Of a stretch of 64,000 nt of DNA, positions 7,667 to 35,361 are shown piece after piece. The notes below the pieces were generated by a model. It searched no databases and was not told the DNA's origin. It was given only the letters and a program-made list of their open reading frames with translations. The stretch is from assembly GCA_029570205.1 (NCBI GenBank), contig JAKQSI010000048.1, forward strand, positions 1 through 64,000. Reading direction: 5' to 3'. Every line of letters begins with the position of its first letter. The stretch's first letter is position 1. The DNA is from Candidatus Omnitrophota bacterium (GTDB lineage Bacteria > Hinthialibacterota > Hinthialibacteria > Hinthialibacterales > JAKPRU01). A program made the translations under genes and the position numbers.

Positions 7667-7688
7667 ACAATTCCTCAATTCTATTTGC

Positions 7689-7715
7689 CTGGATTCCGGC
7701 TTTCGCCGGAATAAC
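7689..7715. repeat. REP-like element, copy 1
   Basis: A perfect 8-bp inverted repeat, ATTCCGGC (7693-7700) and GCCGGAAT (7705-7712), with loop TTTC and flanked by CTGG and AACGCC. The same element occurs at 54177-54196 and 61965-61984. It is followed by a run of nine C (7717-7725). This resembles the widespread dRS3/REP-type element found between genes in many bacteria. Confidence 0.8.
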
Positions 7716-7780
7716 GCCCCCCCCCTCTCCATCCTTGAAGAAAGGCCGGGGAGTGAGGACAGCGGACGCACCAAAATCAA

Positions 7781-7810
7781 AAAGGGCATCCGGTTTCCCG
7801 AATGCCCTTT
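7781..7810 (-). terminator. Terminator of the secreted repeat-protein gene
   Basis: A stem of 13 pairs with one mismatch (7781-7793 with 7798-7810, AAAGGGCATnCGG type) lies 22 bases beyond the stop codon at 7833. In the minus direction it is followed by TTTTTGATTTT, as expected for factor-independent termination. Confidence 0.8.
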
Positions 7811-7832
7811 CCTCTTTCCCTGATGTAGTTGG

Positions 7833-9296: not shown

Positions 9297-9898
9297 TTCG
9301 ACCTCCTGAAAACACAAGATATCGTCTCGTACCAATCTGACACCGCCTTTTTGCTTCAATGAGCCTGAACGGCTCATATCCTCTGCGTCGAGCGAACAGC
9401 CCATCCGCATATTATCGGCCGGGCAACCCGGCATATTGAACGGACAGAATCGCATTCGAACAACAGCAAACACAATCAACGCAGTATAGGGGACTCAGGC
9501 ATCCAGTGTCAAGAGAAAAATCCCCCTTGATATGCAACTAACTCCCTCAATTTGGATTATTAGCCCGTTCCCGTCCCTCGGAACCCCATTTTTTTGCCAT
9601 TTTTGGCTTTCCGCCTCCTTCCCAAAACCTCCTGTTTATGCGAACCAAGAGGCAAGACATCCTGAATTGTCGGGTGTTGCTTGCCCGTTGAATCCCCATC
9701 TGCGAACCTGAATTAAAACAATAGTCCTAAAATCAGACTTTTCATAGGATTAGGTATGCCTTTTGAACGATTATTTTTCGAAAATGAACAGAAAACCACA
9801 GTCTGGGAGAAAATCCCTGAGAAATCCCACTCCAGTTGTGGTGCAGTGCGAAAAAGAATCCACATTTCCACCGCCGTTTTTCTCAGGCGGTCGCATTT
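9297..9898. other. 602-base gap upstream of the repeat-protein gene
   Basis: AT-richer than its surroundings and presumably containing the promoter of the minus-strand gene that starts at 9296. Short plus-strand frames starting at 9756 and 9763 show no domain or codon pattern and overlap the PilZ-like gene antisense. No repeat or RNA gene was recognised. Confidence 0.4.
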
Positions 9899-10225
9899 TC
9901 ATGTTTGCATGGGGGCGCCCAGTTTTTTCAATCCATACAAAGATGAATCCGCACTATCGGTGCGGACCACAACCGCATGAAAAATGTGCGTTCCCTGCAA
10001 AACCCGCTCAAAACCACGCCCCAGCCCCGAAACGAGCACAGAAACCGTTGCCGCCGTGGGCAAATTGCCGGAAGAGCGTACTAAAACCCCGGTTTGGCTC
10101 TCGTTGATAATTTCCCCATGCACGGGACTGACCACACTCCGATGAATCAAAAAACAATGCAGCCCGCATTTCTTTCGTTTTGCACGTGTTTGGTGTTGCA
10201 CTTGCTTGGATTCCCCCTGATTCAT
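9899..10225 (-). CDS. Small PilZ-like domain protein
   Basis: A 108-residue soluble protein. The central part reads as one PilZ-like barrel: a basic RAKRKK stretch (residues 14-19), then GEIINESQTGVLVR. In that stretch N41-x-S43-x-x-G46 matches the (D/N)xSxxG motif that contacts cyclic di-GMP. LPTAATVSVLV follows, and the end is SLYGLKKL. The first basic motif is not a strict RxxxR, so ligand binding is uncertain. It lies 63 bases downstream of the GT-C gene on the same strand and may be cotranscribed with it. The ribosome site is poor (GAAGGGT nearly touching the ATG). It is the weakest CDS call in this region. Confidence 0.45.
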   Translation of the reverse strand: MNQGESKQVQHQTRAKRKKCGLHCFLIHRSVVSPVHGEIINESQTGVLVRSSGNLPTAATVSVLVSGLGRGFERVLQGTHIFHAVVVRTDSADSSLYGLKKLGAPMQT

Positions 10226-10288
10226 ACCCTTCTTTGCCGGTATGGTTTTTTGTCCTGTTCGGCGATTCGTACAAATCGCCGGAACGCC

Positions 10289-12229
10289 TCACCAACTCAC
10301 TTCGTACAACATTAAATACTCAGACCCCCAATTGAATCGCTCAATTGGAACGGCAAATTGTGCCCCATGAATAAGAATGTTGTCAAGGAAAGACTTCGAA
10401 AAAACTGTCTGTGCCCACCGGGAATTCGGCAAAATCAAATAATCCACTTGCCATGAACGGCAATAATTCTCCAAAGTTTCGATAGATTGATCCTCCGGCT
10501 GCGCCCAGGGTTCCCCCAGCCAGGAAATCCGGTTCCCCATTCCATAAGCGGCAAGGTAATACCGACTTGGTTCGTTCGCCATGGGGGCGTAGATTACCGA
10601 CCCATCCGACACATTTTCCTGGAGATAACGAAACAACTGCGCGTAAGGCAGGAAGAACGATTTATAGTTGGTCAGGTTCATCCAAGTCGAGTCTTTAATG
10701 GGTCTTACATCCGGTGTCGGCTCGGCGCGGGGAAACAGCAACACCAGCCAGAGCAGGCAGGCCAGAGAAAGCACAATCAGGCTTTTTCGAACCCATTGCG
10801 CCAATCCGTCCACCATCTGGGCGAATCCGACCCCCGCAAGCAGAATCAGCGGTGGGTAGGATGGAAGCGCCTGGCGGATGTTCTCCGGACTTTTCCAGGA
10901 CAGATAGCAGAGCCAGTACACAACGCACCAGATTCCGGCGTGCAGGAGCGGGCGGCGTGTCATGCGGTCTTTGCGCCACGCAATCCAAATGCCCATTACG
11001 GTCAGAACGAGAATCGGCCAGGTGAATGAGGTCGGAAGCATGGCGACAGGGGTCAGCAGCACGGATGGATCGAGATAATGGGACCACCAGGCGGTATCCG
11101 GCACATCCTGATTGCTCCGAGCCAGCCATTGAAATACCAGGAACATACCGGCGGGCAACCCGAAGCCCAAGGCATCCCGAATGCGGAGCTGCCGCCGAAT
11201 GAAAAACTCACGAACCGCCCACTGAACGGCGGCAACGGGCACAAGAAAAACAAGGACTTGCTTATAGAACACTCCCGCAGTCAACAGGAATAATGCCCGA
11301 CAGTAGTCCCGTCTTCGGGACTCCTCGAAATATCTCAACAAATAGAATTCAGCGACCACGGGCAGGGCCACAGTTCCGCAGTCGATCATGTTCAGATTCC
11401 CGTAATGAAAAATGGGGGGCAGAAACAACAGGATGACGGCTGCGGCAACCGCGGCGGTCTCTTTGAAAAAAAGTATTCCGATCCGGTATAGATAAATCGC
11501 GGCAATCCCCGTGAGAACAATCTGGCTTACCCTGCCGACCCACTCATAAATCCCGAACAGAGAATAAAGAATGCCGAAAAGATACCGACTCAGAGCCGGA
11601 TACCGGGAAATGAACCTCGGGTCAATGTTCTGCCCGATCGTGTCGATTCGAGTCAGGAATTCATATTCCGCGAATCCCACCAGGAAACAGAACAGGACAA
11701 CCTTGATTAACCCATGACTTCCCCGCTTGCCTGATTCATTCCATATAAAATACCGGAAGGCAAGAAAGAGAATCGCAAGCCCGGGCCAGGCAATCAACGG
11801 CAACGGGACTGGGAGGCTGTCGCGAACAATGCCCACCACCACCGCCGGAACTCCGGCGTGTTCTTGGGCATCGAGACCGGTCACAATCGGCGCGTTCAAA
11901 AAGGGCAAGTGGGCCAAAAAACAAAGCGCGAGAAAGGGCCAGAGAACACGAAGGGCCGGATAGAGAAAAGCCGGTTCCTTTATGAACGGCTCGGCATCGC
12001 CCCGAAAAAGCCAATACAACAGAAGCACCCCGGCCGCAATCGCGAGCCAAACGAGCCAGAACGATCCGAGGGCGTTTTCCTGTCCCTGGGAAAACCAGTG
12101 GGGATAGAAAACCAGGCTGGAGCAGCACAGAAGGACAAACCAGATCCCCGCCTCTGCAAAAAGAGAAGAAGGAGTAGTTGATTTTTCCCGGTTTGTCATG
12201 GGTCCAAACGTCTTCCTGTCCAAAGACAT
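10289..12229 (-). CDS. GT-C membrane glycosyltransferase (GT39/ArnT-like)
   Basis: A 646-residue polytopic membrane protein with about 12 hydrophobic segments between residues 28 and 500, followed by a soluble C-terminal domain. This is the plan of dolichyl-phosphate-mannose or ArnT-type glycosyltransferases, which use lipid-linked sugars at the outer face of the inner membrane. The first large loop holds an acidic motif, GLDAQEH (Asp120, Glu123), in the position of the catalytic Asp of GT-C enzymes. The C-terminal part has NYCRSWQVDYLILPNSRW, like the periplasmic domain of related proteins. Two starts are possible: 12229, or 12199 (MTNREK) with AGGAAG about 12 bases upstream. Acceptor unknown. 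Confidence 0.7.
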   Translation of the reverse strand: MSLDRKTFGPMTNREKSTTPSSLFAEAGIWFVLLCCSSLVFYPHWFSQGQENALGSFWLVWLAIAAGVLLLYWLFRGDAEPFIKEPAFLYPALRVLWPFLALCFLAHLPFLNAPIVTGLDAQEHAGVPAVVVGIVRDSLPVPLPLIAWPGLAILFLAFRYFIWNESGKRGSHGLIKVVLFCFLVGFAEYEFLTRIDTIGQNIDPRFISRYPALSRYLFGILYSLFGIYEWVGRVSQIVLTGIAAIYLYRIGILFFKETAAVAAAVILLFLPPIFHYGNLNMIDCGTVALPVVAEFYLLRYFEESRRRDYCRALFLLTAGVFYKQVLVFLVPVAAVQWAVREFFIRRQLRIRDALGFGLPAGMFLVFQWLARSNQDVPDTAWWSHYLDPSVLLTPVAMLPTSFTWPILVLTVMGIWIAWRKDRMTRRPLLHAGIWCVVYWLCYLSWKSPENIRQALPSYPPLILLAGVGFAQMVDGLAQWVRKSLIVLSLACLLWLVLLFPRAEPTPDVRPIKDSTWMNLTNYKSFFLPYAQLFRYLQENVSDGSVIYAPMANEPSRYYLAAYGMGNRISWLGEPWAQPEDQSIETLENYCRSWQVDYLILPNSRWAQTVFSKSFLDNILIHGAQFAVPIERFNWGSEYLMLYEVSW

Positions 12230-12403
12230 GGTGAAAAAAACAGACTATAATGAATAAAATGCGATCAAGAAGGGTAACGAAGTAGAAGACTGTCAGGCTA
12301 CGGATGTGCGCACAGACCGGTGTTGTGCAAATGAATAGTTTTGACAATACCGTCATTGCAAGCGCGACTCCGGCGGGGCCGGTGATTGGGTGAAGAAATC
12401 TGC

Positions 12404-12752
12404 CAGGCAGGGACGCCTGGCCTGGTGGGTGGCTGCCAGGCAGGGACGCCTGGCCTACTGGGTGGCTGCAGGCAGCGACGCCTGGCCTACTGGGTGGCTG
12501 CAGGCAGCGACGCCTGGCCTACTGGGTGGCTGCAGGCAGGGACGCCTGGCCTACTGGGTGGCTGCAGGCAGCGACGCCTGGCCTACTGGGTGGCTGCCAG
12601 GCAGCGACGCCTGGCCTACTGGGTGGCTGCAGGCAGCGACGCCTGGCCTGGTGGGTGGCTGCCAGGCAGGGACGCCTGGCCTACTGGGTGGCTGCAGGCA
12701 GCGACGCCTGGCCTGGTGGGGGCTGCCAGGCAGGGACGCCTGCCTTGGTGGG
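12404..12752. repeat. Tandem array of 11 short hairpin units
   Basis: Eleven consecutive units, nine or ten of 32-33 bases and one of 31, each built on AGGCAG(G/C)GACGCCTGGCC followed by TACTGGGTGGCTGC or TGGTGGGTGGCTGC. Each unit holds a CAGGC/GCCTG-type stem with a 6-base loop. The variants G/C at the seventh position and AC/GG before TGGG are scattered along the array. All three forward frames stay open through most of it, because the unit length is not a multiple of three and no stop is encoded. It ends 63 bases before the next gene. There are no spacers, so it is not CRISPR. Confidence 0.9.
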
Positions 12753-22529: not shown

Positions 22530-24893
22530 TTACCGCATTTTGTCATTTCGACCGAAGTCAGTAGGGGCACGTTGCAACGTGCCCCTGCTTCCACACACCG
22601 GCCTCTCTTTGCTGTTCAGATTCTGCCATACGGCAAACGGGCAATGTGGCGGCTGGTGAAGATCCGGGTCTGCCTGATACAAATCCGCCACGGCGATCTG
22701 GGCATTTTTCAACCATTCGGTATCCCGAACGGGGTCTGCCACCCGAAATGTCCAGAGGCCGCTCTGACGGATTCCGAATAATTCCCCCGGACCACGCAAA
22801 CGCAAATCCTGCTCCGCAAGGTAAAACCCATCCCGCGACTGTTCCAGCACTTCCAGTCTCTGTTTGGCAAACGTGCTGATGTTCGATTTTGTTACCAGGA
22901 CGCAATAGGATTTTTCCGTTCCTCGTCCTACTCTTCCCCGCAACTGATGCAGTTGGGCCAGGCCGAAACGGTCTGCTCCCAGCACAACCATGACGGTCGC
23001 CCGTGGGAGATCCACACCGACCTCTACCACGGTTGTCGCAACAACAAGGTCCAAATCTCCCTCGGCGAGCGCACGCATAACCTCGTTTCGCTCGTCGGCC
23101 TTGAACCGCCCATGCAGAAGCGCAATCCGCCGGTGGGAGAACTCCGACTGCGATAGAGTCTGATAGAACTCTTCCGCCGAGGGATATGCGCCGATCTCAT
23201 CTCCGGGATCGATTACCGGACAGACCACATAAGCCTGTTGGCCAAGGGCCAGTTTTTTATCGACAAATTCCCAGACCTTATCGATCTTGTCCCAGGTAGT
23301 CCAGCGGGTTCTGACAGGGGGTCTTCCGGCCGGCAGTTCGTGGATCTCGGAAATATCCATATCGCCGTACCATGTCAGGGCCAGCGTTCGCGGGATGGGG
23401 GTTGCGGACATCAGAAGCAGATCGGGCCGGGTTCCCTTTTCCACCAGCCTGGATCGTTGCGCAACACCGAACTTGTGCTGCTCGTCGATGACCACCAGTC
23501 CAAGGCGATCGAACTCGATTCGCTCTTCAAAAAGCGCATGGGTTCCGATGACAATATTCAGAGACCCTGCTTCCAGCGCCTGAAGGATCGGTTTCCGTGC
23601 CCGCTCGGTCATTCCGCCGCGCAAGGAAGCCACACTCAGTTCGGGGATGTTTTTCTTGAGTCGCAGGAAGGTGTTGAGATGCTGCTCGGCCAGGATTTCC
23701 GTGGGGACCATCATGGCCGCCTGATATCCGCCGGCAGCAGCCAGGATCAACGCGTAGAATGCCACGACGGTTTTTCCCGATCCGACCTCCCCCTGCAATA
23801 TCCGGTTCATCGGAGTGGGATTGAGCATGTCCTGCTGGATTTCCCGCACGGCGCGCACCTGATCGCCGGTCAGCTGAAACGGCAGAGCCTCCACGTAACG
23901 CGCCGGCCATGTTGCCGGGATTCTCTCGGAAGTCGCCACCCTACTCCCTCCGGGAGAGGAAGAATCCGGCCCGCTCTCCGATGCTAATGGATCGGGAACC
24001 GGCGGAGCGTGTTGCACCCCCTGCGCAGACCGGATGGCAGATCGACTTTGGGCGAGCCGCCATCGCAGCTGAAAGAATTCCTCGAAAATCAGACGATGGC
24101 GGGCAGCGATCCATGCGCCCGTGGAGGGCGCTCGAAACGCATCCGCATCTTCCTCCGGCAACTGCTCAAACAGGTCGGGGTCGTTTCCTGCTGCATTGAT
24201 GGTCGGTACGCCATCCGCAGGTTCCGGCTGGTGAATAACTCGCAGGGCTTCTCCTAATGTCGGCAGGGAATACCGAGCCAGAATGTCCAACGGGAGAAAT
24301 TCCAGCGCTGGAGGAACATATTTCTCCAGCGCCGAGCCGATCATGGCCCGGAGGTGTTTTTGTTTCAGACCTTCGGTAAGCGGGTAAAGCGGAAGAATCC
24401 TGCCCTCGGTGTCCTCCTCATCGGATTCATCCACCCATTCGATCTCAGGGGAGGTCATTTTCAAGGTGAAGTTCCGGTCGTCGAGTTTTCCGAAAAGGCG
24501 GAGACGTGCCCCCGGACGAAGTTTGTCTTTGAGATAGGCCTGGTTGAACCACACGGCCGCCACAGAGGTCCCGCCCGTATCAATCACCGCCTCTACGATA
24601 TTACGCACTCGGCTGTGGGGACGGGCGCGGCGGGCGTAAACGGAATTGACTGTGCCCTGAATAGTCACGGACTTTCCGGGTGTCACGGCCGCGAGAGACC
24701 CGACCACACGCCGGTCTACGTATGCTCGCGGCAGATGCCACAGCAGGTCATAGAGGGTTTCAATCCCCAGTCGGGCCAGAATGGAAGCACGCCGGGGACC
24801 GACCCCCTTTACATACTGCACAGATGCCAAAAGAGGCTCCAGAAGTTTGCGAGCCTCCATATCCGACACCGAGTCAGCCATTCCTCGAACCAT
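22530..24893 (-). CDS. recG: ATP-dependent DNA helicase RecG
   Basis: A 787-residue helicase that remodels stalled replication forks and branched recombination intermediates. The wedge/OB domain lies in about 30-270 (VKGVGPRRASILARLGIETL at about 29). Helicase motif I is GEVGSGKT near 370, motif II is DEQHKFG near 466, the late motifs include VVEVGVDLP and QLRGRVGRG, and the C-terminal LRGPGELFGIRQSG is the RecG signature. Starts at 24893, 24881 and later are possible; a GGAGG fits the second best. The last 20 or so residues (GTLQRAPTDFGRNDKMR) are read from dispersed repeat DNA and are not part of the family. Confidence 0.95.
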   Translation of the reverse strand: MVRGMADSVSDMEARKLLEPLLASVQYVKGVGPRRASILARLGIETLYDLLWHLPRAYVDRRVVGSLAAVTPGKSVTIQGTVNSVYARRARPHSRVRNIVEAVIDTGGTSVAAVWFNQAYLKDKLRPGARLRLFGKLDDRNFTLKMTSPEIEWVDESDEEDTEGRILPLYPLTEGLKQKHLRAMIGSALEKYVPPALEFLPLDILARYSLPTLGEALRVIHQPEPADGVPTINAAGNDPDLFEQLPEEDADAFRAPSTGAWIAARHRLIFEEFFQLRWRLAQSRSAIRSAQGVQHAPPVPDPLASESGPDSSSPGGSRVATSERIPATWPARYVEALPFQLTGDQVRAVREIQQDMLNPTPMNRILQGEVGSGKTVVAFYALILAAAGGYQAAMMVPTEILAEQHLNTFLRLKKNIPELSVASLRGGMTERARKPILQALEAGSLNIVIGTHALFEERIEFDRLGLVVIDEQHKFGVAQRSRLVEKGTRPDLLLMSATPIPRTLALTWYGDMDISEIHELPAGRPPVRTRWTTWDKIDKVWEFVDKKLALGQQAYVVCPVIDPGDEIGAYPSAEEFYQTLSQSEFSHRRIALLHGRFKADERNEVMRALAEGDLDLVVATTVVEVGVDLPRATVMVVLGADRFGLAQLHQLRGRVGRGTEKSYCVLVTKSNISTFAKQRLEVLEQSRDGFYLAEQDLRLRGPGELFGIRQSGLWTFRVADPVRDTEWLKNAQIAVADLYQADPDLHQPPHCPFAVWQNLNSKERPVCGSRGTLQRAPTDFGRNDKMR
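22563..22586. repeat. Perfect 24-base palindrome inside the end of recG
   Basis: The half-site AGGGGCACGTTG is followed immediately by its exact complement. It is preceded by TCATTTCGACCGAAG, itself a motif common between genes. It lies within the last codons of recG (minus strand) and supplies its tail. Confidence 0.9.
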
Positions 24894-24978
24894 CCTCCGG
24901 AATCAGGACCATTGTATGGGCGATCGGCTCATAAGGGGATGGGGAGATATCCGCTCTCAACAAATCCGGCCCCGCGAA

Positions 24979-27285
24979 TCAAAGAAGGTTGTACTTTCCC
25001 CCCAGACCAAGAAAGCGCAACAGAAATCGAATGGTGTAGTCTTCGTCCCGATCCAGACGATTCCGATGTTCCAATTCGACAATCGCCTGAAAATCATGCA
25101 GGTTCCGAATAATGCTCAGGCGGCTCTTTCGGAGAATACTCTCATCCGCATCGTATCGTTGACCGAGACGGAGTGAATATTTTTCGGATAATTTCAGTTG
25201 CGTATTCCAATACAACTCCTCCTGGCTGTCCACATCGATCAGTTCGTCCTCGAACGTGTTGAATCCGATACGGGAACTCCACCGGGCAATCGGTCGAACA
25301 TCCACATAGACGTTGCTGGATCGTACCGTGCTGTCGTCGATGTCGTACCGGAGGTTGTTTCCGAGGGCAAACCAGTTTACCGGCGCCAGTTCGAATTCCT
25401 CGAAATAATCCGTGTAGCGATGATCGTCGGAATCCGCCTTGTCGTTGATGTAGGACAGGTTATCGAAACGGAGATTCTCATCCGGGAAGTAATCGTAGGC
25501 GCTGCCCATGGTCAACCGGGCCAGCGTGTGAGTACCGTCCGGGGCCTTTCGCTGAAGCTTCGTATTGACCCGCGCGGATATACGGTGGAAAGTAGCGCGG
25601 AAGTCGTCAACATCGTCGATATACGGGAACCGATCACGCGGATCGACATCCAGGCCGATTTCCTCGAGATCCGTGTCCGGCTGAAAATAATCATATCCGA
25701 GAATCGGCTCGAACACGAAGCGCATTTTCCCCCAGGAACCCCCGGGATCGAAATAGGCAATGGATCGTGTACCGAGTTCGGTGCCGGTCTCAAGCATCCC
25801 ACGGAACTCATCGTCAAATTCTTCATTTGCCAGGGCACGAGTCCGGCGGACCGGGTCGGAATAATTGGTCCCACGGTATCCGAGATAGGGCTGTAAGTAC
25901 CAGCCGTATGCGAGGTCGAAGGGAGAGAAAAGCCGTAATTCGGCGTCGGTTCGCTGAATCTCTTCGATGTAATTGGTTTCATCCTTGGCGGAATGTCGGG
26001 GTTGATACCCCTGTTCGCGCCGGGCATCGTCATAGGCAACATGGGCGTCCAGATAAAGGCGCGTATCCATGAAGCTGGACGGCATCAAATCCCAGCGGGC
26101 CTGGGGAAGACGCTCGGTTCGTGGCAGCTGGCTGTAAAAGTAATCCTCAAGGTATTTTGTCCCGGTAACCCGGATTGTTTGACGATCCCAGCTCTTGGAT
26201 ACGGAGAGATCGGAGGGATAGTCCCGTTCGAGTTCATCGGAGGAAACACCGCGCATCTCCATGACACTATCGAAATCTTCATTGAACTCAAAATCGGAAG
26301 AGCGGTGGAACCGGCTTCGCACGGTGATATCATAAGGGAGTGTCTGTCGGTAGTACCCGTCGAGCCGATACCGATCGTCATCTTCAAAAAAATCGTCATC
26401 ATCCGCATCACGCTGGCTCACCCCATACCATCGGATTCTCCCGTCCGGCCCGCCTTCACCGGGGAAATGAAAGTTCCAGGATGCCCCATACCCATACCCG
26501 ACGTCCGAGAAGGTATCGCCGAAGAATGCGAGACGAAGACGGGGGTCCAGGTGTACAATCAATTTGTGCATCGTGGTGAATCCCAGATGTCCCAAACTGG
26601 CGGCGCCGAAAATGTAGGCAATCCGAGGTCGGGCCAGGGAACGGGTAAAATAAGGCAAGTATCCCAGCGGGAAACCGTTCTGTACCCACCAGATGTCATA
26701 CAACCAAAATCGGTCGCCCGGCAGAACAGTCATGGTGTCGTATTCAATGTAATAATGGGGAACCGGCATGTCGCAGGTGGTGACCGTTCCGTCGAGAATG
26801 GTGTATTGGTCGATCATCTTCGGTTCGGTGGCTCCCCGGGGGATGTTGCCGGGGACCTCCTGACGGATGACTTCTTTGCCGGTGATGTATAGTTCGGGGT
26901 CGATATAGGAATGTCTCAGGTTATAGAGGCGGGCTTCCTCCTTTTCGAGGTCGTAAACCACCTGGTCGGCTACCATCAGCCGACCGTTGTCCCACATTCT
27001 GACATCTCCCTGGGCGCGGATCTGCTGTACATTCTGATCCACAACGACTTCGTCGGCGGTGATCGAGCGGTCTCCATAGACGACATTTGCCCGTTCATCT
27101 TCCCGACTCTTGATAATCAGCACACCTTCATCGCCCAGGTATTCCGCATCCCCGTGGCATTGAATCGGAATAGGAACGGGAAATGTGAATTCAGCGGTGG
27201 CATCCTCCTGCGCCCGGGTTGAGGAGGGGAAAATTGCCAAGCCGATGAAAACAGGAAACCACAGGCAAAATCCCGTCCGGACCAT
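24979..27285 (-). CDS. lptD: LPS-assembly outer-membrane protein LptD
   Basis: A 768-residue outer-membrane protein that inserts LPS into the outer leaflet. The signal peptide is residues 1 to about 25 (TGFCLWFPVFIGLAIF, cleaved after TRA). An LptA/OstA-like region follows at about 40-230, with SITADEVVVDQNVQQIRAQG and LMVADQVVYDLEKEEARLYN. It is followed by the LptD barrel domain rich in alternating aromatic strands ending in FLGLGGKYNLL. The frame is open to 27549, but a start there would overlap the flavin reductase gene; the ATG at 27285 begins the signal peptide, and 27345 is an alternative. No strong ribosome site is seen. It diagnoses an LPS-bearing cell. Confidence 0.85.
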   Translation of the reverse strand: MVRTGFCLWFPVFIGLAIFPSSTRAQEDATAEFTFPVPIPIQCHGDAEYLGDEGVLIIKSREDERANVVYGDRSITADEVVVDQNVQQIRAQGDVRMWDNGRLMVADQVVYDLEKEEARLYNLRHSYIDPELYITGKEVIRQEVPGNIPRGATEPKMIDQYTILDGTVTTCDMPVPHYYIEYDTMTVLPGDRFWLYDIWWVQNGFPLGYLPYFTRSLARPRIAYIFGAASLGHLGFTTMHKLIVHLDPRLRLAFFGDTFSDVGYGYGASWNFHFPGEGGPDGRIRWYGVSQRDADDDDFFEDDDRYRLDGYYRQTLPYDITVRSRFHRSSDFEFNEDFDSVMEMRGVSSDELERDYPSDLSVSKSWDRQTIRVTGTKYLEDYFYSQLPRTERLPQARWDLMPSSFMDTRLYLDAHVAYDDARREQGYQPRHSAKDETNYIEEIQRTDAELRLFSPFDLAYGWYLQPYLGYRGTNYSDPVRRTRALANEEFDDEFRGMLETGTELGTRSIAYFDPGGSWGKMRFVFEPILGYDYFQPDTDLEEIGLDVDPRDRFPYIDDVDDFRATFHRISARVNTKLQRKAPDGTHTLARLTMGSAYDYFPDENLRFDNLSYINDKADSDDHRYTDYFEEFELAPVNWFALGNNLRYDIDDSTVRSSNVYVDVRPIARWSSRIGFNTFEDELIDVDSQEELYWNTQLKLSEKYSLRLGQRYDADESILRKSRLSIIRNLHDFQAIVELEHRNRLDRDEDYTIRFLLRFLGLGGKYNLL

Positions 27286-27433
27286 CGCGCGGGCAGAGTA
27301 CGCCTGGGGAACCACGCGGTTGGATGAGATTCCGGTCACAGGCATCAACCCGATAAACAAAAGATTCTCTCTTCTACCATAGGCGTTCACCGGCGTCAAT
27401 TTCCATGCGTTCGGATTTTGCGGGGAAAGAGGC

Positions 27434-27946
27434 TCATTTTTCCGCAAAGGTTCCCAGGATTTCCCCGTAATAGACCCGATGAAGGTCCGCATTCGGGTAA
27501 GCGGACTGCATGATCTCCTCGGCCAGATGTCCCGCCCGGATGTCTTCATAGTTGACCACCACGCACTCGTAGCAGATTTCGCATTCCACGATGGTAGGGG
27601 ATTTCACGAATTTTCCCGGAGCGGGTGTGATTTTGCATTCGGCGAATTTGTCTTTCTCTCTGCCGGATCGGCTGCCGCAGATCATGGTCACCTGCTCCAT
27701 CCCCGGCGCGGGAACATTGACGGTGAAATCGCCGGTTGCCTCGATACAGCCATAGGTATACCTGGACGGACGCACCAAGACCGTGAAAATCGGCTTTCCC
27801 CAGACCACACCGACGGTTCCCCAGCCGATGGTCATCACGTTCGGTTTCAGGTTCCGGTCGAGGGAAGCCAGCAACAACCCGGCGCTTTCAAGCCTTTGCA
27901 GAGTCACATCCAGCAGATGGGTGTAGGGAACCTCGATCTTCGCCAT
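27434..27946 (-). CDS. Flavin reductase / flavoredoxin family protein
   Basis: A 170-residue flavin-binding protein of the FMN-binding split-barrel type. Key strands are NVMTIGWGTVGVVWGKPIF (about 35-54), TVLVRPSRYTYGCIE, FTVNVP and the helix-adjacent CGSRSGREKDKF near 91. These match flavoredoxin-like flavin reductases, which bind FMN and transfer electrons or reduce free flavin with NAD(P)H. A GGGAGG lies 8 bases before the ATG. The gene is followed by lptD on the same strand with about 150 bases between them, and its partner oxygenase or electron acceptor is not in view. Confidence 0.82.
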   Translation of the reverse strand: MAKIEVPYTHLLDVTLQRLESAGLLLASLDRNLKPNVMTIGWGTVGVVWGKPIFTVLVRPSRYTYGCIEATGDFTVNVPAPGMEQVTMICGSRSGREKDKFAECKITPAPGKFVKSPTIVECEICYECVVVNYEDIRAGHLAEEIMQSAYPNADLHRVYYGEILGTFAEK

Positions 27947-28245
27947 ATTGCTTACCTCCCAAAGTCTGCTATGGACCTTTTCGGAACACCCCGTTTCGGG
28001 GTAATGAGCAATGAGACAGGGAATTTCCTTTCAATTCAAGGGAGATCCGTTGATGAGACCGAGAATCGCTCTTCCTCTTTCCGTTTGGTACGGGTTGAAG
28101 TAGGATTCTGAGGATAACCTGGAGACAATGTGGCATCCATGGTGTCCAGGAAGCGGGAGAAGACGCGGTAGGCAAATTATGGCATGGCGTGAGATGAACA
28201 GAGCCAGATGTGAAATAACCGAATAGAAACGGAAGGGATTCGCCA
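27947..28245. other. Spacer with a small hairpin and the left direct repeat
   Basis: Divergent intergenic region between the flavin reductase and the OLD-family gene. It contains a hairpin (ACCCCG-TTT-CGGGGT, 27988-28002) and the left copy of the flanking direct repeat. The promoter of the defence cassette should lie in 28119-28245; a GGAAGGGA ribosome site sits 7 bases before the ATG at 28246. Confidence 0.5.
28033..28118 (+). repeat. Left direct repeat flanking the defence cassette
   Basis: It begins AATTCAAGGGAGATCCGTTG and, after a variable middle, ends TTCCTCTTTCCGTTTGGTAC, GGGTTGAAGTAGGATT, CTGAGGATAAC. A matching copy in the same orientation at 32682-32771 shares GGAGATCCGTTGAT, TTCCTCTTTCCGTTTG, GGTTGAAGTAGGATT and ATAAC, with the middle differing. 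No other copy was found by eye in the window. Confidence 0.75.
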
Positions 28246-30078
28246 ATGAGGATCTCACACATCAAAATCCACAATTTTCGGAGTATTCGAGAATTGGAAA
28301 TTGTTTGCAGGCCCTTGATGATTCTGTTGGGACCAAACAACCACGGGAAGTCAAATGTTCTGGCCGCTCTGGAGTTTTTCCTTACCCCTGGCGAGAAGGT
28401 CGAAAGATCGGATCTTTTTGATTTCGACTCGCGCAAGGATGAGCAAATCTGGGTTGAAGTCGAATTTCGGGAATTGACGCGCCAGGAGAAGACGACTTTT
28501 AAGAAGTACCTTCTGAGCGACCAAAGCCTTCGGGTCAGAAAGACGGCTACGTTTGAAGGAGACAAGCCGACATTCCAGTATCAGGGTTGGCTGGAAGAAC
28601 CAAGGGTGGAGTGGCTTAGAGCTGACAATGCTGGAGATTATACGAATCGGGAGAATATTGGGGGAACCGGTTTGAAGGATTATATCCCAGCCTCGGGTAG
28701 ATTGAGTAAGGCCAAGGTTGAAGAAGCGCAGCAAGCCTACTTTGCCGAACATCGCGAAGAATTGACGTTGGACCTTGTCTTTGAATCAGGAAACTTCCTC
28801 GGTCAGAAAAGTGTGGGCGGTGGCGTGCTGCCAGATTTCTATCTGGTTCCGGCTGTGCGTGATCTGTCCGACGAAACCAAGATCAAGAGCACAGCGCTAT
28901 TGGGTCGCTTGGTAAATCGGGCAGTTCAGATCATGAGTGAGACGGACCCAGCATTCCTCGAAATTCAGAAACAGTTGGAGAAACAGATTGCACGACTGAA
29001 TGAAAGGGACGTGGATGATCAACCGAAGATAGAACAGATTCGGGAAATTAAGTCTGGTCTGGAGGGCGAGCTGAAATCTTGGGACGTGAAGATTGACCTC
29101 CAGATCGAAACCCCCTCCATTGACAAGATTTTTGAACTGGGGACCTATTTACATCTCGATGACGGAATTCGCACCTTGGCCGAAAAGAAAGGCCACGGTC
29201 TCCAGCGTGCCCTGATTTTCGCACTGCTAAAGACATGGGCAAGGTTTGTCAGGTTACAAACAGAAGAAGATAGTGGCGGGGAAACAAAGCCGCGAGTGAG
29301 TTCCGATTCGGTTTACTTCGCAATTGAGGAACCCGAACTATTCCTTCACCCCCAGGCGCAACGAGAATTGGCAACATCCTTGGCGATACTGGCCGAAGCC
29401 GAAGGATGTCAGGTGTTCGTTTGCACACACTCCAGTCATTTTGTTGATATGGAGCAATATCAAAGCATCTGTCTGATCTCAAAACACAACCCACGGGAAG
29501 GATCGACTGTGCGTCAGTGCACACAGGACCTTTTTCCCGGAGACGACAACAAGGTCAAGAAAGATCGTCTGAATATGGCCTACTGGATCAATCCTGATCG
29601 TGGCGAAATGTTCTTCGGACGCAAAGTTATCTTTGTGGAAGGTCCCACAGAGAAAACAGTGATTCCGTTTCTCGCTCGGAAAATGGACATTTTCGACAAT
29701 GCGGTTTCTATAATAGACTGCGGTACAAAGCACAATCTTCCACTTTACATGACAATCGCCAAGGCCTTCGCGCTCGATTACGTCGTTATCCACGATGAAG
29801 ATCCGCTGCCCGACCCGATTCCCAACGATTGGCCCGATGACAAGAGAAAGGCGAAGAAAAATACGTTTGATCTGAATGCCACCATCCAATCATTGCTGGA
29901 CGGCTCCCAAGGAAAAGTGCTCATGATCTCGCCGGATTTTGAGGAAGTTGCAGGCATATCAAAGAGTCAGGGGGATAAGGTTGGCAAACCTCTTGCCGCC
30001 TTGCAGTATTTCGAAGACAAGTCCACGGAGAGCATTCCTGAGAGAATTCGAGAGTTGGTTCAGACCATATATGAGTGA
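28246..30078 (+). CDS. OLD-family ATP-dependent nuclease (ATPase + TOPRIM)
   Basis: A 610-residue protein of the overcoming-lysogenization-defect family. The SMC/RecF-like ATPase has Walker A GPNNHGKSN (residues 29-37) and Walker B FAIEEPELFLHP near 358, with a THSSHF switch near 395. A coiled-coil-like region (about 225-285) lies between them. The C-terminal TOPRIM nuclease domain starts at about 461 with IFVEGPTEKTVI (catalytic Glu), with the DxD-type element VVIHDEDP near 515. OLD proteins are DNA nucleases acting in phage defence, alone or with a helicase partner. Here the last four bases overlap the next gene (GTGA), tying it to the restriction enzyme rather than to a UvrD-like partner. 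Confidence 0.85.
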   Translation: MRISHIKIHNFRSIRELEIVCRPLMILLGPNNHGKSNVLAALEFFLTPGEKVERSDLFDFDSRKDEQIWVEVEFRELTRQEKTTFKKYLLSDQSLRVRKTATFEGDKPTFQYQGWLEEPRVEWLRADNAGDYTNRENIGGTGLKDYIPASGRLSKAKVEEAQQAYFAEHREELTLDLVFESGNFLGQKSVGGGVLPDFYLVPAVRDLSDETKIKSTALLGRLVNRAVQIMSETDPAFLEIQKQLEKQIARLNERDVDDQPKIEQIREIKSGLEGELKSWDVKIDLQIETPSIDKIFELGTYLHLDDGIRTLAEKKGHGLQRALIFALLKTWARFVRLQTEEDSGGETKPRVSSDSVYFAIEEPELFLHPQAQRELATSLAILAEAEGCQVFVCTHSSHFVDMEQYQSICLISKHNPREGSTVRQCTQDLFPGDDNKVKKDRLNMAYWINPDRGEMFFGRKVIFVEGPTEKTVIPFLARKMDIFDNAVSIIDCGTKHNLPLYMTIAKAFALDYVVIHDEDPLPDPIPNDWPDDKRKAKKNTFDLNATIQSLLDGSQGKVLMISPDFEEVAGISKSQGDKVGKPLAALQYFEDKSTESIPERIRELVQTIYE

Positions 30079-31076
30079 TATTGCGTGAGCCCAACCGGAA
30101 AGCGATTTATGCAATGCCCGTTAATATGGACAAACCACATCTTTGGAAAGCAGACATCGGGCGTTCCGTCGATTTCTACAACGACTGGTTCATGCGGTTT
30201 GCTCCGAAGGCATATCGAGATACCCGACAGGAAACAACCCGACAGGTGGAAGCCGCACTCCGTTTGACTGGCAATCTAACCGACATTTCCCCGGAAACAC
30301 TGTCACAGCATCCGGAGATACTTCCCATTTTTCGCATGGCAACTGCTCCGCCTATCGCTCGTGACAGATTGATAGGGCTTGCGTCCATCTCACCAAACCT
30401 CGTGAAGAACATGGAACTGAACCGGCGCATTCCTCCGAATATGGCGAACCAGAGAGTTGCAGACGAATTGGGACGAATCGGCTCTCTTATTCGGAAACTG
30501 GCCGATGCTGACATTCTTCCTTGGCTTGAAGACGAACATGTGCCAAAGAAGGCTGTCGTTCACCGCGCGGCAACAGTCATCGCGGATCGACTCTGTGGAG
30601 CGTCTGCAGATCCTATTATTCGAAACGCTCAGGAAAGACGCCAACTTGCGTTTATTCAAGACTGGCTTGAGAAGCGTCAATACCGAAATATAAAGCCCTC
30701 GATGGTCTCCGACTTCCGGGAAATGGAACCAGCCACTTTCTCCTTTCACCTCAACGCGCCCGTGACGCTCGAAGGTGGCCAAACTCGGATCAATATCCCC
30801 ATTGATGTCGTGATCATGCCAAAGCAACGCAAGAGAAACCTCTTGCCGATTTTGATTGAATGCAAGTCAGCGGGCGACTTCACGAATACAAACAAGCGCC
30901 GCAAGGAAGAAGCCATGAAGATTACCCAGCTACGATCCAATTATGGAAAGGATGTCTGCTTTATCCTATTCCTGTGCGGCTACTTCGACAGCGGTTATTT
31001 GGGTTATGAAGCCGCAGAGGGATTGGATTGGGTTTGGGAACATCGGATTGACGACCTGGTTTGCTTCGGAATTTGA
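30075..31076 (+). CDS. XamI-family type II restriction endonuclease
   Basis: A 333-residue endonuclease resembling the XamI family, whose founding member cuts GTCGAC. Family-like stretches are SVDFYNDWFMRFAPKAYRDT (about 32-51), FRMATAPPIARDRLIGLASI (about 85-104) and ILPWLEDEHVPKK. A probable PD-(D/E)xK core is Asp244 in IPIDVVIMP and Glu262-Cys-Lys264 in LIECKSAGD. The GTG start at 30075 overlaps the OLD gene stop by four bases; an internal ATG at 30114 is a possible alternative. It is followed three bases later by the methyltransferase, giving the standard restriction-modification pair. The recognition sequence cannot be read from sequence and is assumed by family only. Confidence 0.8.
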   Translation: MILREPNRKAIYAMPVNMDKPHLWKADIGRSVDFYNDWFMRFAPKAYRDTRQETTRQVEAALRLTGNLTDISPETLSQHPEILPIFRMATAPPIARDRLIGLASISPNLVKNMELNRRIPPNMANQRVADELGRIGSLIRKLADADILPWLEDEHVPKKAVVHRAATVIADRLCGASADPIIRNAQERRQLAFIQDWLEKRQYRNIKPSMVSDFREMEPATFSFHLNAPVTLEGGQTRINIPIDVVIMPKQRKRNLLPILIECKSAGDFTNTNKRRKEEAMKITQLRSNYGKDVCFILFLCGYFDSGYLGYEAAEGLDWVWEHRIDDLVCFGI

Positions 31077-31078
31077 AG

Positions 31079-32659
31079 ATGAGACACCTAGAACAGCAGG
31101 AAGAGCGACGCCTTGCCCTTCAGACGCAGCTTGATGCGATGAAGACTCAAGCGGAAAGAAATCGCTTTGGGCAATTTGCCACACCGACCGCTCTAGCTGT
31201 CGATATTCTTGAATATGCAAAAACCATATTCCCCAGAGAGATGCCCGTTCGCTTTCTCGATCCGGCAATTGGAACAGGCTCCTTCTATTCCGCCTTTCTC
31301 CGGGTGTTTGGCAACACAACCGCACAGTGGGCAGTGGGCTATGAAGTTGACAAGCATTATGCATTTCCTGCGCGGCAATTGTGGGACGCGTATCCACTCG
31401 ATATTCGTGTTGATGATTTCACCAAGTCCGATCCTCCGATCGAGGAGGCAAGCAAGGCGACACTCGTGATCTGCAATCCGCCCTATGTTCGTCACCATCA
31501 TATAAAGTGCACTGAAAAGGAGCGCCTTCACAGTATTCTCTTGATGAATCACGGAATTTCTCTCTCTGGACTGAGCGGTCTTTATTGTTATTTCCTTTGT
31601 TTATCAAAGAAATGGATGGCACATGATGCGATTGCAGGATGGCTTATCCCCAGCGAGTTCATGGACGTGAACTACGGAAGAGCCGTGAAGGAGTTTCTGC
31701 TGGATCATGTGACATTGCTTCACATCCATCGTTTCTCACCGGAGGACACTCAGTTCAGCGATGCGCTGGTTTCTTCCGCTGTCGTATGGCTCAAGAACGC
31801 CACACCGCCACAAGGTCATCATGTCAGATTTTCTCTTGGCGGTTCACTACTAAGGCCTGTCAATGAGCAGACGTATTCTATTGATGTCTTATGTAAAATA
31901 GGCAAATGGACCTCCCTTCCACAGGCACACAGTCAAAGAAGTCTTGGCAGGCCCAGATGGATCATCGGTGATTTCTTTGATGTCAAAAGAGGAATTGCCA
32001 CCGGTGCCAATGACTTCTTTGTGTTGTCAGCCGAAGAAGCACTCCGCCGGTGCATTCCGCAGGAATTTCTTGTCCCGATTCTGCCCAGTCCACGATACCT
32101 CAAGTCCGACTTGATTGACGGCAATGAAACAGGGATTCCCCAAATTGAAAAACAGGTCTTCTTGTTCTCAAGTGAGTTATCTGAAGAACAGATTCAGAGA
32201 CAGTATCCCCCTGTCTGGAGATACCTTCAGGAGGGACATGAACAGGGAATTCCTGAACGGTACATCTGCCGGAATCGTGATCCCTGGTATTCCCAGGAAA
32301 AGCGAGCTGTTGCACCATTCCTTTGCACCTATATGGGCCGCTCAAGTCAACAGGAGAACTCGAAGCCTTTTCGGTTCATTCTGAATCGATCTCAGGCAAT
32401 TGCCGGAAACGTTTATTTGATGCTTTACCCCAAATCCTGGGTCAGAAAGAGGATGATAGAAGACCCCCATCTTCTGGAAGAGGTTTGGCGTGCTTTCAAC
32501 ACGATTCCTATTGAGAGTCTTCTTGGGAATGGGCGGATTTATGGCGGTGGCCTCCACAAGATTGAACCCAGAGAATTGCTCTATGCACCTGCGGGGTCGC
32601 TTGCCTCACTTTTTCAGCATAACATCGATCCGCGTAGTGTTCAGACGACCCTTTTTTAG
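31079..32659 (+). CDS. N6-adenine DNA methyltransferase of the XamI-type system
   Basis: A 526-residue gamma-type (Eco57I/TaqI-like) adenine methyltransferase. A leading helix rich in Glu/Gln (about 1-30) is followed by FGQFATPTALAVDIL. SAM motif I is FLDPAIGTGSFYSAF near 62, motif IV is VICNPPYVRHHH near 137, and the target-recognition part runs from about 300 to 520. The protein would methylate adenine in the site cut by the XamI-like enzyme and so protect the host. The ATG at 31079 lies three bases after the endonuclease stop; a TTG at 31061 is in frame but less likely. The right flanking repeat begins 23 bases after its stop. Confidence 0.88.
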   Translation: MRHLEQQEERRLALQTQLDAMKTQAERNRFGQFATPTALAVDILEYAKTIFPREMPVRFLDPAIGTGSFYSAFLRVFGNTTAQWAVGYEVDKHYAFPARQLWDAYPLDIRVDDFTKSDPPIEEASKATLVICNPPYVRHHHIKCTEKERLHSILLMNHGISLSGLSGLYCYFLCLSKKWMAHDAIAGWLIPSEFMDVNYGRAVKEFLLDHVTLLHIHRFSPEDTQFSDALVSSAVVWLKNATPPQGHHVRFSLGGSLLRPVNEQTYSIDVLCKIGKWTSLPQAHSQRSLGRPRWIIGDFFDVKRGIATGANDFFVLSAEEALRRCIPQEFLVPILPSPRYLKSDLIDGNETGIPQIEKQVFLFSSELSEEQIQRQYPPVWRYLQEGHEQGIPERYICRNRDPWYSQEKRAVAPFLCTYMGRSSQQENSKPFRFILNRSQAIAGNVYLMLYPKSWVRKRMIEDPHLLEEVWRAFNTIPIESLLGNGRIYGGGLHKIEPRELLYAPAGSLASLFQHNIDPRSVQTTLF

Positions 32660-32681
32660 TTCGTTCAGATCGGCTTCTCCG

Positions 32682-32771
32682 AATTCCCGGAGATCCGTTG
32701 ATCACCACAGACCCGCCCTTCCGCATTCCTCTTTCCGTTTGATACCGGTTGAAGTAGGATTTTGAGATAAC
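32682..32771 (+). repeat. Right direct repeat flanking the defence cassette
   Basis: Same orientation as 28033-28118. It shares AATTC, GGAGATCCGTTGAT, TTCCTCTTTCCGTTTG, a run matching GGTTGAAGTAGGATT, and ATAAC. It ends about 40 bases before the glgP ATG and therefore probably includes part of that gene's leader. Confidence 0.75.
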
Positions 32772-32811
32772 GAATACAGGGAATTGGTTTTTCCATGGAG
32801 GATTGAAAAAC

Positions 32812-35361
32812 ATGCTTCGAAAATTCGTGGTCGCGCCACGTATTCCGGATTCGCTGAAACGGGTCCGGGAAATCGCTTACAACATCTGGTGGAGCTGGGA
32901 CAAAGAGGCCATTGAACTGTTTCGCCGCCTGGACCGGATCCTCTGGGAACAATGCTACCAGAATCCCGTTCGGATGTTGGGCTGCCTTTCGCAGGAGCGA
33001 TACGAATTTCTTGCGAACGACGAAAGCTATCTCTCCCACCTGGAACGGGTGGCCGCGAAACTGGATGCTTATCTGAAGGCGCATACCTGGTTCGGCGAAC
33101 AATCCTGCCCCATCAAGACATTTCGAGTTGCCTACTTCTCCGCCGAGTTCGGTCTGACCGACTCTCTGCCGATCTACAGCGGCGGTCTCGGAATCCTTGC
33201 CGGCGACCATCTGAAATCCGCCAGCGACCTGGGCATTCCCCTCGTGGGAGTCGGGCTGCTTTACCGGCTGGGGTATTTTCGTCAGTACTTGAGCGTGGAT
33301 GGCTGGCAGCAGGAGCTCTACCCGGAAAACGATTTCTACAACATGCCGGTGGAACTGGAGCGTGACGACAAAGGAAATCCGCTCCGAATTTCCGTCGAAT
33401 ACCCTCAAGGAGAGGTCAAAGCGCAAATCTGGCGGGTCAATGTGGGACGGGTCAAATTGTACTTCCTGGACACGAACATTGAGGAGAACGCGCCGGAGAG
33501 CCGCCCCATTACGGGGCAACTTTATGTAGCCGATCAGGACATGCGGATTCGCCAGGAAATCATGATGGGGGTGGGCGGAGTGCGTGCCCTGCGTGCCCTG
33601 GGGATATCCCCCATGGTGTATCACATGAACGACACCCACCCGGCATTTCTGGCTATTGAACGCCTTCGCGAAGTAATGACGGAGCACAAATTAACCTTTG
33701 AGGAGGCCTGTGAAGTAGTCACCGCCGGAACCGTCTTTACCACCCACACCCCGGTCCCCGCGGGCAATGAAACCTTCCCACCGGAATTGATCGACCGCTA
33801 CTTCTCCACGTTCTATCCTCAGCTCACTCTCAACAGAGAAAGATTCCTCGCACTCGGTCGGATCGATCCGCACAACCGTGCCGAACCGTTCGGCATGACC
33901 GTGATGGCCTTGCGCCTTTCAGGAAGACACAACGGAGTCAGCCGTCTGCATGGTGAGGTCGCTCGGAAAATGTGGAATCCGCTCTGGAAAGATGTTCCGC
34001 AGGCCGAGATCCCTATCATGCACATCACCAATGGTGTGCATATCAATACCTGGATCTCTAATGATCTGGTGGGGTTGTATGATCGTTATATCGGTCCTCG
34101 CTGGACGCTGACCCCGGCGGATCAGAGCATCTGGAAACGGGTGGACCAGATTCCCGATGCGGAATTGTGGCGGACGCATGTCCGACGGCGTGAACGGCTG
34201 GTCGCGTTTGCGCGACGGCGTTTACGGATGCAATTGACAAAACGGGGCGCACCCCGCGCCGAAATTGAGCAGTCCGATGAGATCCTGGACCCGGAAGCCC
34301 TCACCATCGGATTTGCGCGACGATTTGCCACGTACAAACGCGGAACACTGCTGTTCACCGATTTGAATCGACTGAAACGAATCCTCTCTAATCCGGAACG
34401 GCCGGTCCAGATTATCTATTCCGGAAAAGCCCATCCCGCCGATAACGCCGGAAAGGAACTCATTCGACAGGTCATCCAACATGCACGCACAGAGGATTTT
34501 CGCCGAAGAATTGTGTTTCTCGAGGACTATGATGTGAAAGTTACCCGATACCTGGTCCAGGGCGCCGATGTCTGGCTCAATACACCCCTTCGGCCCATGG
34601 AGGCCAGCGGAACCAGCGGCATGAAAGCCGCGGCGAATGGGGCGCTCAACATGAGTATCCCCGACGGCTGGTGGCCGGAGGCCTACGATGGAACCAACGG
34701 CTGGACCATCGGGCAGGGCGAGGACTACTCGGACCGGAATTACCAGGACCGGGTCGAAAGTCAGGCCATCTACGACATGCTGGAAAAAGAAGTCATCCCC
34801 ATGTTTTACAACCGGGGATCCGACAATATCCCGCGTGAGTGGCTGAAGGCGATGAAATCCACTTTGCGCACCATCTGCCCCGTGTTCAATACCAACCGGA
34901 TGGTGAAAGAATACATGGAACGCTCCTACCTCCCATCGGCGACACGGTGGGCACATCTCACAGTCGATGACATGGCCCGCGCAAAGGCGTTGGCTGCCTG
35001 GAAACAGAAAGTCTCTTCCGAATGGAAAAATCTCAAAATCCTTCATGTCGAAACGGATATGCCGGAGAACGTGGAGGTCAACGTCTCTTTTGTGGTTTCC
35101 GCCGAAGTGCAGCTGGGCGGATTGGCCCCCAAGGACGTCGCGGTGGAACTGTACTTCGGACCGTTGGACTCCCAGGGGAATATCGCCTCAGCGGAGGTCG
35201 CTCCGATGACTCTCCAGCACACGCTGGGCGCAGGACGCTATAAGTTCAATACGCTGGTATCCTGCTCCACCAGCGGTCAACATGGCTACACAGTCCGCAT
35301 CCGGCCCTCGCATGAGGATTTGTCCAGCCGGCACGAAACCGGCCTGCTGTGCTGGTATTGA
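32812..35361 (+). CDS. glgP: Alpha-glucan (glycogen/maltodextrin) phosphorylase
   Basis: An 849-residue GT35 phosphorylase of the short bacterial type that releases glucose 1-phosphate from glycogen or maltodextrins. The N-terminal DUF3417 domain (residues 1 to about 100, IPDSLKRVREIAYNIWWSWD) precedes the catalytic core. AYFSAEFGLTDSLPIYSGGL lies near 105. The PLP-binding lysine is about 605 in EASGTSGMKAAANG, and the core ends with WWPEAYDG. A C-terminal beta-domain (about 750-849) is extra. ATG 32812 is 10 bases after GGAGG; a TTG at 32803 is too close to it. It is a single gene, convergent with the mannosidase gene. Confidence 0.93.
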   Translation: MLRKFVVAPRIPDSLKRVREIAYNIWWSWDKEAIELFRRLDRILWEQCYQNPVRMLGCLSQERYEFLANDESYLSHLERVAAKLDAYLKAHTWFGEQSCPIKTFRVAYFSAEFGLTDSLPIYSGGLGILAGDHLKSASDLGIPLVGVGLLYRLGYFRQYLSVDGWQQELYPENDFYNMPVELERDDKGNPLRISVEYPQGEVKAQIWRVNVGRVKLYFLDTNIEENAPESRPITGQLYVADQDMRIRQEIMMGVGGVRALRALGISPMVYHMNDTHPAFLAIERLREVMTEHKLTFEEACEVVTAGTVFTTHTPVPAGNETFPPELIDRYFSTFYPQLTLNRERFLALGRIDPHNRAEPFGMTVMALRLSGRHNGVSRLHGEVARKMWNPLWKDVPQAEIPIMHITNGVHINTWISNDLVGLYDRYIGPRWTLTPADQSIWKRVDQIPDAELWRTHVRRRERLVAFARRRLRMQLTKRGAPRAEIEQSDEILDPEALTIGFARRFATYKRGTLLFTDLNRLKRILSNPERPVQIIYSGKAHPADNAGKELIRQVIQHARTEDFRRRIVFLEDYDVKVTRYLVQGADVWLNTPLRPMEASGTSGMKAAANGALNMSIPDGWWPEAYDGTNGWTIGQGEDYSDRNYQDRVESQAIYDMLEKEVIPMFYNRGSDNIPREWLKAMKSTLRTICPVFNTNRMVKEYMERSYLPSATRWAHLTVDDMARAKALAAWKQKVSSEWKNLKILHVETDMPENVEVNVSFVVSAEVQLGGLAPKDVAVELYFGPLDSQGNIASAEVAPMTLQHTLGAGRYKFNTLVSCSTSGQHGYTVRIRPSHEDLSSRHETGLLCWY

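What the first reader, a model, noticed from the sequence alone, without database searches (positions are those of the whole stretch)
28033..32771. Three-gene defence cassette bounded by imperfect direct repeats
The OLD-nuclease, XamI-like and methyltransferase genes occupy 28246-32659 exactly between two same-orientation repeats of 86 and 90 bases that share GGAGATCCGTTGAT, TTCCTCTTTCCGTTTG and GTTGAAGTAGGATT. The interior looks less GC-rich than its neighbours. This suggests the cassette was gained by recombination between repeats or by an unknown mobile unit; no integrase or transposase is present.
Basis: partly seen in the sequence, partly recalled or inferred. Interest (0 to 1): 0.72.

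Follow-up and report, generated by a model that had tools for sequence, protein, structure and literature searches.

The report
Restriction-modification unit between duplicated target
A restriction-modification gene pair (with a phage-defence nuclease gene added later in this genome) sits between two old copies of a roughly 100-base stretch of host DNA that occurs only once in a close relative lacking the genes; the same kind of scar borders the same gene pair in unrelated bacteria, which fits a known but poorly understood way in which restriction genes move without a transposase.

Summary
Two same-orientation imperfect repeats (28022-28118 and about 32680-32771; best block 41 nt, 93%) bracket OLD, XamI REase and MTase genes, and they are the only two copies in the genome. 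The cassette is unusually AT-rich (GC 0.492 against 0.546±0.011). Congener G002 has the empty site with one repeat copy between the same neighbours. Congener G001 has REase and MTase between two copies but no OLD. So this is not one three-gene unit: a two-gene XamI restriction-modification (RM) unit is flanked by a target duplication, and OLD was most likely added in the G000 lineage. Around the site G000 and G002 diverge about 11% against about 2% elsewhere, so presence/absence was most likely exchanged by homologous recombination in the flanks. Elsewhere the same RM pair is bordered by 48-327 bp direct repeats of unrelated local sequence; two such loci have clean empty sites with one 125-128 bp copy. 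Over 72 loci, 6 had such repeats against 0 of 381 control intervals. This matches 'insertion with long target duplication', already described for RM genes. New member of a known kind; the enzymology of insertion remains unknown.

The parts
28022..28118 (+). Left copy (L) of the duplicated target; conserved core 28041-28112
   Evidence: homologous to the right copy, to both copies in G001 and to the single copy in G002
28119..28245 (+). Leader between the L repeat and the first gene; only weakly similar to the leader upstream of the REase in G001
   Evidence: 5' 150 bp G000/G001 score 26 against a 95% null of 21
28246..30078 (+). OLD-family nuclease (AAA_15 ATPase + OLD TOPRIM), 610 aa; absent from G001 and G002
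   Evidence: (PF13175 1.3e-38, PF20469 3.6e-15, PADLOC Old 221 bits)
30114..31076 (+). XamI-family Type II restriction endonuclease, 320 aa
   Evidence: PF09572 1.8e-111; 92.5% aa to G001, dN 0.036, dS 0.516
31079..32659 (+). Eco57I-type N6-adenine DNA methyltransferase, partner of the REase, 526 aa
   Evidence: PADLOC MTase_II 423 bits; 80.5% aa to G001, dN 0.098, dS 0.70; pair present in 79 of 80 XamI loci
32680..32771 (+). Right copy (R) of the duplicated target, directly upstream of glgP; conserved core 32689-32766
27488..28118 (.). Left part of the tract in which G000 and G002 are abnormally diverged (11.4% against 2.05%)
32689..33212 (.). Right part of the same diverged tract (10.5% against 2.7%), including the start of glgP

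Best explanation
The core is a two-gene XamI-type RM unit (REase then MTase, roughly 2.7 kb with its leader) that inserted, in or before the common ancestor of G000 and G001, into the flavin reductase-glgP intergenic region and duplicated about 100 bp of that target ('insertion with long target duplication'). One copy stays on the left neighbour's side and one directly in front of glgP, so neither gene is interrupted. The OLD gene was most likely added later, between leader and REase, in the G000 lineage. Since then the occupied and empty versions of the locus appear to have been exchanged between related lineages by ordinary homologous recombination through the flanks (breakpoints near 27.49 and 33.21 kb). 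Shown: both repeats, the empty site with one copy, the RM-only version, the diverged tract, purifying selection on REase and MTase, and the same arrangement with unrelated repeats at other XamI loci, two with empty sites. Inferred: that the duplication arose at insertion; how it arose (for example joining of a free RM DNA into a break with widely staggered nicks followed by fill-in, or single-crossover integration of a circle); the order of OLD acquisition; and that the enzymes are active.
For: Empty site: window 24080-28118 and 32689-34628 align to one contig of G002 and overlap in one repeat copy of about 84 bp. G001 has REase+MTase between two copies. The repeat occurs nowhere else in G000, G001 or G002. 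Other XamI RM pairs: L063 135 bp 98.5%, L114 126 bp 97.6%, L089 124 bp 91%, L099 48 bp 96%; 6/72 loci (these four, the G001 locus itself, and L106, probably a dispersed repeat) against 0/381 same-length control intervals. G011, same class: REase and MTase remnant between 327-bp 96% repeats lying in a gene resembling threonine synthase. Empty sites with one 128-bp copy (G521 for L114) and one 125-bp copy (G514 for L089), with left and right flanks matching the outer flanks of the two copies. No terminal inverted repeats in any unit; no transposase or integrase between the repeats. OLD absent next to all 80 XamI loci and without a full-length relative in 14 class genomes other than G000. REase and MTase under purifying selection. 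REase relatives on 12 plasmid records. Tract: 2.05% to 11.4% at 27488 (2lnLR 99) and 10.5% to 2.7% at 33212 (2lnLR 45); glgP dS 0.44 in the first 540 bp against 0.10 further on.
Against: At this locus the repeats are old (about 72% identical) and the G000/G001/G002 copies are too diverged to give a clean L/R genealogy. The empty allele of G002 lies in a tract of different ancestry, so it cannot be proved to be the pre-insertion state. Only a minority of XamI loci (6 of 72) have detectable repeats; the rest may be older, inserted otherwise, or have lost them. The relatives are fragmented draft assemblies. The mechanism is not visible in sequence.
Confidence: 0.8

Rival explanations
1. Single-crossover (Campbell-like) integration: a plasmid or other circle carrying the RM genes and a copy of the glgP leader recombined with the chromosomal copy, leaving the RM unit between two copies.
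For: Gives the same end product; XamI REases occur on 12 plasmid records, including small ones of 6.9 and 9.5 kb.
Against: The donor would need to carry host DNA from the target each time: the repeats differ in every host and are local chromosomal sequence, and no plasmid backbone lies between them.
Confidence: 0.12
2. Excision in G002: the cassette was present in the G000/G002 ancestor and was lost in G002 by recombination between the two repeats, leaving one.
For: G001, which is more distant, also has the RM pair, so loss in G002 is parsimonious for presence/absence; one copy remains.
Against: G002 is diverged for 0.5-0.6 kb on both sides of the site, which simple excision does not produce; allele exchange through the flanks explains it better.
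Confidence: 0.15
3. Excision/integration by a site-specific recombinase acting in trans, the repeats being attachment sites.
For: Direct repeats at the borders and one copy in the empty site.
Against: Repeat length (48-327 bp) and sequence differ at each XamI locus, no tRNA in the window, no integrase between the repeats.
Confidence: 0.03
4. The repeats are two copies of a dispersed intergenic element, and the cassette lies between them by chance.
For: Imperfect identity; strongly conserved 36-nt core.
Against: Only two copies in G000, two in G001, one in G002, all at this site.
Confidence: 0.02

Closest known systems
Insertion of restriction-modification genes with long target duplication (Nobusato et al. 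2000 and Furuta et al. 2010, as cited in PMC3874152, PMC3031569 and PMC1643837)
   Same: RM genes bordered by direct repeats of the order of 100 bp, one copy at the empty site of a related genome, no transposase, chromosomal target
   Different: The described example is in Helicobacter pylori; here it is the XamI family in unrelated bacteria, the window's copy is old and diverged, and an OLD gene has joined the unit
XamI Type II RM system (PF09572 REase with Eco57I-type MTase)
   Same: Both genes present, same order as in 79 of 80 fetched loci, intact and under purifying selection
   Different: An OLD gene is placed upstream; recognition sequence not established
OLD-family nucleases / Gabija GajA
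   Same: AAA ATPase plus TOPRIM architecture
   Different: The adjacent genes are an REase and an MTase, not a GajB-type helicase; best PADLOC model is Old, not a GajA model

Membership tests
Insertion with long target duplication | RM genes bordered by same-orientation repeats of the order of 100 bp | tested here: met
   about 97-bp L copy and about 92-bp R copy
Insertion with long target duplication | related genome has an empty site with a single copy | tested here: met
   G002; also G521 and G514 for two other XamI loci. Caveat: the G002 allele lies in a recombined tract
Insertion with long target duplication | repeat is target DNA, not part of the mobile unit | tested here: met
   repeat unrelated between loci; absent elsewhere in the three congeneric genomes
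Insertion with long target duplication | duplication generated at the moment of insertion | not testable with these tools
   needs an observed insertion
XamI Type II RM system | REase and adjacent cognate MTase | tested here: met
XamI Type II RM system | recognition of GTCGAC (from memory) | tested here: inconclusive
   GTCGAC 4 seen against about 15 expected in the window, but only rank 6 of 64 palindromes, so not specific
Gabija | GajA next to a UvrD-like GajB helicase | tested here: not met
   adjacent genes are REase and MTase on one side and flavin reductase on the other
OLD family | ABC-type ATPase plus OLD TOPRIM domain | tested here: met
Transposon or composite transposon | terminal inverted repeats and transposase | tested here: not met

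The most novel reading that the evidence does not exclude
XamI-type RM units are autonomous movers: across several phyla the two-gene unit inserts itself, perhaps through breaks made by its own endonuclease, by a dedicated reaction that duplicates about 50-330 bp of target and needs no transposase or terminal repeats, and it can pick up further defence genes such as OLD on the way.
Probability: 0.15. Interest if true: 0.75.

Novelty: new member of a known kind. Interest (0 to 1): 0.47.

Why it matters
How stand-alone RM genes move without recombinases is an old open question. The XamI family offers several independent insertions with matched empty sites (G002, G521, G514), some with nearly identical repeats, so junctions, repeat lengths and mechanism become testable in one homogeneous family. 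The locus also shows an RM site acting as an acquisition point for another defence gene, and its presence/absence being spread by ordinary flank recombination.

Tried and rejected
Rfam search of 27300-33400: nothing. Promoter scan: no consensus site in the repeats, fewer promoter-like sites than in shuffles, so 'the repeat carries the glgP promoter' stays unproven. GTCGAC avoidance as a test of specificity: depleted but no more than several other palindromes. Chimaera test on G002's repeat to prove excision: copies too diverged and G002's tract of different ancestry. A first MTase comparison in a wrong reading frame suggested relaxed selection; corrected. Terminal inverted repeats: none. L063 as an empty-site case: relatives carry the same insertion, decayed, or lack synteny, so not used as proof. 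L106 is counted among the 6 of 72 but is probably a dispersed cyanobacterial repeat. REase relatives: none in phage records, one in viral contigs.

Full report
Observation. The left copy spans about 28022-28118 and the right about 32680-32771. The best ungapped block is 41 nt at 93%, and the overall identity is only about 72%. The match is highly significant (genome-wide E=1.6e-11), and a 36-nt core allowing 3 mismatches occurs exactly twice in the 4.39-Mb assembly. GC of 28246-32659 is 0.492 against 0.546±0.011; none of 503 windows outside is as low. REase and MTase have the most deviant codon usage among the long ORFs; OLD is within the range of other genes.

Genes. 28246-30078 encodes an OLD-family protein: AAA_15 ATPase with OLD TOPRIM. 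30114-31076 is a XamI REase (PF09572, 1.8e-111) and 31079-32659 an Eco57I-type MTase. The pair shows purifying selection against its G001 orthologues (dN/dS about 0.07 and 0.14).

Relatives. Only two congeners are held. G001 (about 85% identical DNA; its contig is recorded as 'Candidatus Omnitrophota bacterium') carries REase and MTase at the same site between two copies of the repeat but no OLD; 28113 corresponds to G001 9308 and 30089 to G001 9423. G002 (about 98% identical outside the locus) has an empty site: 24080-28118 and 32689-34628 align to one contig and overlap in one repeat copy of about 84 bp. Neither congener has the OLD gene elsewhere, and no full-length relative was found in the other class genomes searched. 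In 80 XamI loci from many phyla, 79 have the MTase directly after the REase and none has OLD next to it; one has an OLD-like match about 5 kb upstream. The simplest reading is a two-gene RM unit to which OLD was added in the G000 lineage; loss of OLD in G001 is not excluded.

How presence/absence varies. G000 and G002 differ by about 2% outside the locus but by about 11% in 27488-28118 and 32689-33212 (likelihood breakpoints, 2lnLR 99 and 45). glgP has dS 0.44 in its first 540 bp and 0.10 further on. So a tract of different ancestry spans the site in one of the two genomes: occupied and empty alleles were most likely swapped by homologous recombination in the flanks. Which genome received the tract cannot be decided; G001 is about equally far from both inside it.

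Where the repeats come from. The repeat is local DNA: one copy at the empty site, none elsewhere in G000, G001 or G002. The same RM pair elsewhere is bordered by long same-orientation repeats of unrelated sequence: Anabaenopsis L063 135 bp 98.5%, Paraprochloron L114 126 bp 97.6%, Hormoscilla L089 124 bp 91%, Silanimonas L099 48 bp 96%. With the G001 locus and L106 (probably a dispersed repeat) that is 6 of 72 loci, against 0 of 381 same-length intervals placed elsewhere in the same loci. The 72 loci are the closest relatives of the query, and the control intervals are not independent of each other. G011, of the same class as this genome, has REase and an MTase with broken frame between 327-bp repeats at 96% that lie in a gene resembling threonine synthase (assigned by eye from the translation); many differences are single-base indels, so sequencing error is possible.

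Empty sites elsewhere. G521 matches L114 5347-6861 and 9497-10063, overlapping in one 128-bp copy whose left neighbour is that of the L copy and whose right neighbour is that of the R copy. G514 does the same for L089 with one 125-bp copy. In two Hormoscilla assemblies the RM pair is 96% identical while the flanks are unrelated, i.e. different sites. These are the marks of insertion with duplication of a long target stretch. Six unit versions (two of them the orthologous G000 and G001 units) have no terminal inverted repeats; end sequences are shared only by the orthologous pair G000/G001 and, at the 3' end, by the two cyanobacterial units L114 and L063.

Literature. PMC3874152 states that some RM systems insert with long and variable target duplications of the order of 100 bp, citing Nobusato 2000 and Furuta 2010. 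PMC1643837 describes the H. pylori pattern. PMC3031569 discusses it beside IS-linked movement. The primary papers were not read: Furuta 2010 is not held, Nobusato 2000 was known only through citations. A search for XamI with restriction-modification returned one genome paper on Xanthomonas, so I found no earlier description for this family, in a library that lacks most subscription papers.

Mechanism. Shown: structure, empty sites, allele exchange tract. Inferred: the RM DNA was joined into a break whose strands were cut about 100 bp apart, and fill-in duplicated the target. A circle integrating by homology is the main rival. No enzyme for this is encoded in the unit other than the REase and MTase.

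Verdict. Real, well supported, and a new member of a known kind, with a useful generalisation to the XamI family.

Noticed in passing
L141 (G087 contig C68) 3701-6421: Same insertion as Anabaenopsis L063 with both flanking repeats and an MTase match, but most of the REase is deleted: an RM unit decayed to a lone methyltransferase.
   Followed up: partly
L039 (G011) 7325-10771: XamI unit inside a gene resembling threonine synthase, with a 327-bp duplication; MTase frame broken, many single-base indels between repeat copies suggest sequencing error or decay.
   Followed up: partly
L145 8139-10353: MTase followed by a second partial copy of its 3' end (330 bp, 87%), a duplication inside an RM locus.
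   Followed up: no
L143 (G109) 2831-3546: Remnant of a XamI REase next to the same repeat sequence as in L063, apparently a decayed relic of the insertion.
   Followed up: no
L155 (G513) 583-1451: Same RM 3' end and right repeat as Hormoscilla L089, but with about 870 bp of extra DNA between MTase and repeat.
   Followed up: no
12400-12742: Tandem array of a 32/65/97-base GC-rich unit (CAGGCAGCGACGCCTGGCCTACTGGGTGGCTG) in the window.
   Followed up: no
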